Of a stretch of DNA of 64,000 nt, positions 1,719 through 63,865 are shown one piece after another. Made by a program: the position numbers and the translations under genes. Origin of the DNA: Numida meleagris (Eukaryota > Chordata > Aves > Galliformes > Numididae). The stretch lies in the NCBI RefSeq assembly GCF_002078875.1, contig NC_034421.1, positions 14,775,218 to 14,839,217 on the forward strand, in the 5' to 3' direction. The notes under the pieces are model-generated. The model was given only the letters and a program-made list of their open reading frames with translations, made no database searches and had not been told where the DNA came from. The first letter of the stretch is position 1; every line of letters starts with the position of its first letter.

Positions 1719-63865
<62,147 letters not shown>

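What the first reader, a model, noticed from the sequence alone, without database searches (positions are those of the whole stretch)
27630..27653. 24-nt microexon inserting SHRQSWRK just before the JNK docking motif
The sequence shows an acceptor, 24 bases and a GTAAAT donor, in phase with exons 4 and 5. The product [14 protein letters not shown] matches, with one change, a segment I recall from rodent JIP3. It adds Arg/Lys residues immediately N-terminal to [12 protein letters not shown], so inclusion could alter JNK docking strength or selectivity. That functional effect is inference.
Basis: partly seen in the sequence, partly recalled or inferred. Interest (0 to 1): 0.75.

Follow-up and report, generated by a model that had tools for sequence, protein, structure and literature searches.

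The report
JIP3's known eight-residue neuronal-type microexon

Summary
Window 27630-27653 is a 24-nt cassette exon of MAPK8IP3/JIP3, coding SHRQSWRK in frame, directly before the exon with the JNK docking motif. Of 179 JIP3 proteins parsed, 135 carry an insert here, all with Trp; 44 lack it. It occurs in bird, turtle, crocodile, squamate, amphibian, mammalian (one human model) and 7 teleost models. None of 59 JIP4 proteins matches its pattern, and no candidate appeared in the matching JIP4 intron of the same genome.

It is probably not new. A review (PMC7464089, passages) cites Ito 2000: mouse JSAP1a-d arise from alternative exons 5 and 6, with JNK binding coded by exon 6. Counting window exons, the microexon is exon 5. 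The weaker JNK3 binding reported there goes with a 31-residue part, matched here by a second donor of exon 6 (30513 versus 30606). A zebrafish mapk8ip3 microexon, not specified in the text read, has been deleted; phenotypes were mild (PMC12626420).

Altered JNK docking is untested. I favour tuning of a disordered linker, with neural, probably SRRM4-driven, inclusion (inferred).

The parts
23695..23786 (+). MAPK8IP3 coding exon 4 (end of LZI coiled coil plus linker, ...SVPGR AG|)
27630..27653 (+). 24-nt cassette microexon, SHRQSWRK, counted as exon 5
   Evidence: peptide in relatives
27578..27627 (+). five TGC triplets within 60 nt of the acceptor (27578, 27587, 27593, 27596, 27625): SRRM4-type layout
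   Evidence: highest of 22 acceptors (next 3); 1.1% of 60-nt windows of the whole window, 1.8% of those in this intron stretch, have 5 or more
27550..27627 (+). 78 nt without AG before the acceptor, T-rich
   Evidence: the three microexons have the three longest AG-free tracts of 22 acceptors (91, 78, 69; next 58); exon 8 site corrected (28)
27495..27535 (+). three GCATG words (27495, 27523, 27531), possible Rbfox sites (protein assignment recalled)
   Evidence: 3 in the 200 nt upstream, no other acceptor has more than 1; no binding tested
30460..30464 (+). tandem acceptor (TTAG CAG): exon 6 starts at 30462 or 30465, adding or dropping one Ser
   Evidence: both forms among relatives; PDB 8pr2_B has the form without Ser
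30462..30513 (+). short form of docking exon 6, (S)[17 protein letters not shown], donor ATG|GTACGT
   Evidence: same short form by sequence pattern in 10 of 241 fetched proteins
30514..30606 (+). 93-nt extension of exon 6 = 31 residues (VRGQIG...SSYK), same length as the 31-aa part reported for JSAP1c/d

Best explanation
The 24-nt stretch is exon 5 of MAPK8IP3, a conserved alternatively included microexon. Shown here: splice sites, phase, annotated inclusion and skipping in relatives, presence from teleosts to mammals, no match in the JIP4 proteins seen. Inferred: inclusion is favoured in neurons by SRRM4 acting on the upstream TGC-rich, AG-free tract. The eight residues lie in a linker, modelled as disordered, between the LZI coiled coil and the JNK docking motif and add one constant Trp plus three basic residues without touching the docking core. 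I think this gives the linker an extra contact, or changes its reach, so that it tunes which partners sit beside JNK on the scaffold rather than switching JNK binding on or off.
For: Gene and exon order. Only candidate at its thresholds. 135 of 179 parsed JIP3 proteins have the insert, 135 of 135 with Trp, among them 7 teleost models such as Labeo, Channa and Oreochromis. Both forms annotated in single species, for example Xenopus tropicalis P0119 and P0141 and Strigops P0168 and P0174. TGC-rich, long AG-free upstream tract, like the layout described for SRRM4 targets (PMC12626420 Results part 1 of 2; PMC5247714 abstract and passages). AlphaFold model of P0025: helix to residue 163; residues 175-185, which hold the microexon at 177-184, below pLDDT 50 (alignment of 29 sequences). 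Four mouse isoforms from exons 5 and 6 (PMC7464089 passages).
Against: No RNA-seq and no SRRM4 data for this exon were seen, so neural inclusion is inferred. Rows are mostly predicted models, many from the same species, in clusters of 90% identity, so the counts are not independent. Teleost rows came from unusually long models only, and one teleost model (P0165) lacks the insert. Residues other than Trp vary (first H/P/Q after S/T/A, fifth S/T/N/H). Phenotypes of microexon removal in zebrafish were mild overall; the mapk8ip3 line showed a brain-activity difference and was listed for further study, its transcript not yet checked by qRT-PCR (PMC12626420, passages); which microexon it was is not in the text read.
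Confidence: 0.65

Rival explanations
1. One reading: the added basic residues directly change strength or selectivity of JNK docking.
For: The insert lies immediately before the docking motif and adds R, R and K; that motif is required for pJNK clearance from axon terminals (PMC3585007, passages); protrudin has a microexon adjacent to its FFAT motif, which makes a motif-side microexon plausible (PMC5247714).
Against: In the window [13 protein letters not shown] is the same with and without the exon. The isoform difference in JNK3 binding told in PMC7464089 goes with the 31-aa part. Constant Trp is not explained by charge alone.
Confidence: 0.25
2. The exon brings in phosphorylation sites (RQSWRK and RKSRK are PKC-like) that gate the docking site.
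For: Sequence pattern only; kinase preferences recalled.
Against: The Ser at position 5 is Thr, Asn or His in some species, and the Ser after RK is dropped by the NAGNAG form.
Confidence: 0.1
3. A chance or unused pseudo-exon.
For: No transcript evidence was available here.
Against: Same length, place and Trp from teleosts to mammals in annotated models.
Confidence: 0.02

Closest known systems
Mouse JSAP1/JIP3 isoforms a-d, alternative exons 5 and 6 (Ito 2000, seen only as cited in review PMC7464089, passages)
   Same: Exon order, JNK-binding exon 6, a 31-residue alternative part (93 nt here)
   Different: Bird sequence; H where most mammals have P; the original paper was not held, so exon 5 = this microexon rests on counting exons
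SRRM4-dependent neuronal microexons, e.g. protrudin exon L (PMC5247714, abstract and passages)
   Same: Short in-frame exon, TGC motifs upstream, lies beside a short interaction motif
   Different: SRRM4 dependence not tested for MAPK8IP3 here
Conserved mapk8ip3 microexon deleted in zebrafish (PMC12626420, passages and Results part 1 of 2)
   Same: Same gene; microexon conserved between mouse and zebrafish
   Different: The text read does not say which of the gene's microexons it was
MKK7 N-terminal isoforms with and without a JNK-binding D domain (PMC8699841, passages)
   Same: Splicing acts at a JNK docking region
   Different: There the docking part itself is removed; here it stays

Membership tests
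MAPK8IP3 (JIP3) gene | Exon-by-exon similarity to JIP3 rather than JIP4 | tested here: met
Alternatively spliced microexon (27 nt or less) | 24 nt, multiple of 3, GT-AG, no stop | tested here: met
Alternatively spliced microexon (27 nt or less) | Included and skipped transcripts | tested here: inconclusive
   Both forms among annotated protein models of single species; no reads, and none for this bird
SRRM4-regulated neural microexon | UGC motif and pyrimidine tract directly upstream | tested here: met
   layout as
SRRM4-regulated neural microexon | Neural inclusion lost on SRRM4 depletion | not testable with these tools
   needs RNA data
JSAP1 exon 5 (Ito 2000) | Alternative exon just before JNK-binding exon 6, with a 31-aa option | tested here: met
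   exon count and 93-nt donor pair against a PMC7464089 passage; mouse exon 5 sequence itself not seen
JNK-docking switch | Changed JNK affinity with the exon | not testable with these tools
   needs binding assay
JIP4 (SPAG9) counterpart | Homologous microexon at the same intron | tested here: not met
   0 of 59 JIP4 proteins match the pattern (pattern demands Trp; segments listed); no candidate in L013, same genome, at acceptor 5.3 and donor 7 or better

The most novel reading that the evidence does not exclude
The microexon is a second docking element: its constant Trp with flanking basic residues makes a contact on JNK, or on a partner kinase held beside it, so that neuronal JIP3, and not JIP4, presents a longer composite docking motif. 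With the NAGNAG Ser and the 31-residue option, one gene would offer up to eight docking variants.
Probability: 0.15. Interest if true: 0.5.

Novelty: already known. Interest (0 to 1): 0.25.

Why it matters
JIP3 links JNK to axonal motors, and its gene is linked to neurodevelopmental disease (PMC12626420 introduction passage; PMC12016931 abstract start). A conserved alternative insert touching the JNK docking motif, next to two further length options of the same segment, means that the isoform should be stated and controlled in JIP3-JNK experiments; the chain in PDB 8pr2 lacks the insert.

Tried and rejected
Pfam gave no family at E up to 1 for the 87-aa exon 4-6 product. A paper search for SHRQSW or JIP3 found 524 papers; the 10 listed hold SHRQSW 0 times. 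C. elegans unc-16 was considered as a homologous event and dropped: its alternative exon is 84 nt (PMC8378409, passages). The JIP4 intron was scanned for a counterpart, without result. A pattern that demanded Trp was circular for the Trp count, so one search counted inserts by length alone. Of 182 proteins without the JIP4 pattern, three were left unparsed there: P0139, a malformed JIP3 model that still shows HRQSWRKSRKERP, and P0203 and P0206, annotated JIP4. P0043 (peafowl) has an odd insert (RAQHSWN) that looks like a poor gene model but is counted among the 135. P0165 (Coryphaenoides) has no insert and is counted among the 44.

In one search the exon 8 acceptor was wrong; re-scored only its AG-free tract. 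The AlphaFold model is weak outside the coiled coil (mean pLDDT 48.4). PMC7205035 came up for MAPK8IP3 with SRRM4 and was not opened. The supplements of PMC12626420, which would name the microexon, could not be read.

Full report
What is there. The + strand of the window carries MAPK8IP3 from its first coding exon (1719) to about residue 940. The window is at C18:14775218-14839217 of a 1.04-Gb assembly. The protein is bird-like: a 224-residue stretch is identical at 221 positions to emu P0001 and at 216 to peafowl P0043. The species was not identified. The 24-nt exon sits in the 6.7-kb gap between exon 4 (to 23786) and the docking exon (from 30462), exactly as reported.

More than chance. It was the only candidate at its own thresholds in the stretch scanned. 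Three protein searches listed the best 120 of 2661, the best 120 of 374 and all 98 hits, 241 different proteins in all. Of these 179 JIP3 proteins could be parsed: 135 have an insert between GR and the docking motif and 44 do not. All 135 inserts contain Trp. The commonest forms are SPRQSWRK (mammals, human model P0138 included) and SHRQSWRK (among others birds, turtles, crocodile, squamates and frogs). The seven teleost models with an insert have THRHTWRK, AHRPNWRK, TQRHTWRK (three), SQRHTWRK and SQRHSWRN. Rows are models and isoforms, not independent species.

A cluster of choices around one motif. The docking exon has a tandem acceptor that adds or drops one Ser (both forms among relatives) and two donors 93 nt apart that add or drop 31 residues. 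Together with the microexon this makes up to eight local variants. The 31-residue option equals in length the part reported for JSAP1c and JSAP1d, which bind JNK3 less well (PMC7464089, passages). That passage also says that the four forms arise from exons 5 and 6 and that JNK binding (residues 201-217) is coded by a region of exon 6. In the window the docking exon is the sixth coding exon only if the microexon is counted as the fifth. I therefore take the microexon to be the published exon 5; the original paper was not held.

Control. Upstream of the acceptor are five TGC in 60 nt, the last at 27625, and 78 nt without AG; the TGC count is the highest of 22 acceptors scored (1.1% of all 60-nt windows of the window reach five). 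The other two microexons of this gene share the long AG-free tract (69 and 91 nt) but not the TGC richness (1 and 0). SRRM4 use of such sites is described in PMC5247714 (abstract and passages) and PMC12626420 (Results part 1 of 2). No SRRM4 data on this exon were seen, so SRRM4 control is inference. Three GCATG words lie 95-135 nt upstream; three or more in 200 nt occur in 0.25% of the whole window but 2.5% of this intron stretch, which includes the site itself. Their link to Rbfox is recalled.

Protein side. The LZI coiled coil of JIP3 was put at residues 74-177 (PMC6831827, passages). In the AlphaFold model of P0025 the long helix ends at 163 (P0025 numbering) and the microexon residues 177-184 are below pLDDT 50. 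In zebrafish, Jip3 without residues 202-214 fails to rescue pJNK accumulation but rescues axon length (PMC3585007, passages; similarly PMC6718271, passages). That numbering fits a form without the microexon (inference).

JIP3 only, as far as seen. None of 59 JIP4 proteins matches the microexon pattern (segments). The same genome's JIP4 intron (L013, 5,151 bases, exon 4 counterpart ending in the same AG phase) holds no comparable candidate and no W[RK][KRN] peptide.

In print. Among the papers opened, PMC12626420 names a mapk8ip3 microexon and PMC7464089 tells of the JSAP1 isoforms. I found no paper testing the microexon's effect on JNK binding, but most listed papers were not opened and only open-licence papers are held, so this absence is weak.

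Verdict. Real, conserved, correctly placed, very probably already described in mouse; the functional claim is open.

Noticed in passing
window 47550-47561: A 12-nt microexon (GGGAGTTCTCAG, flanked by AG and GT) that supplies EFS of the GEFSVRDDFFGMG segment found in relatives.
   Followed up: partly
window 49020-49037: An 18-nt microexon (VRDDFF). Joined to the 12-nt one and the next exon it reads GEFSVRDDFFGMG; among relatives EFSVRDDFF, EFS alone and rarer forms occur.
   Followed up: partly
window 30513/30606: Docking exon 6 has a good inner donor (score 7.1) and a weak outer one (GTTTTA, score -0.3), 93 nt apart.
   Followed up: yes
proteins P0071, P0084, P0094, P0098, P0112, P0113 (squamates): Lizards, geckos and a snake keep the microexon but have a changed docking segment (e.g. 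VKRRPNSLNIPL in P0113 in place of [13 protein letters not shown]).
   Followed up: no
window 54002-54083: Relatives vary at VSSYLCTEL and (Q)CSSPLQ before DNIPIAQ, pointing to a further alternative segment.
   Followed up: no
window 27495-27535: Three GCATG words close together upstream of the microexon; three or more occur in 0.25% of 200-nt windows of the whole window and 2.5% of those in this intron stretch.
   Followed up: partly
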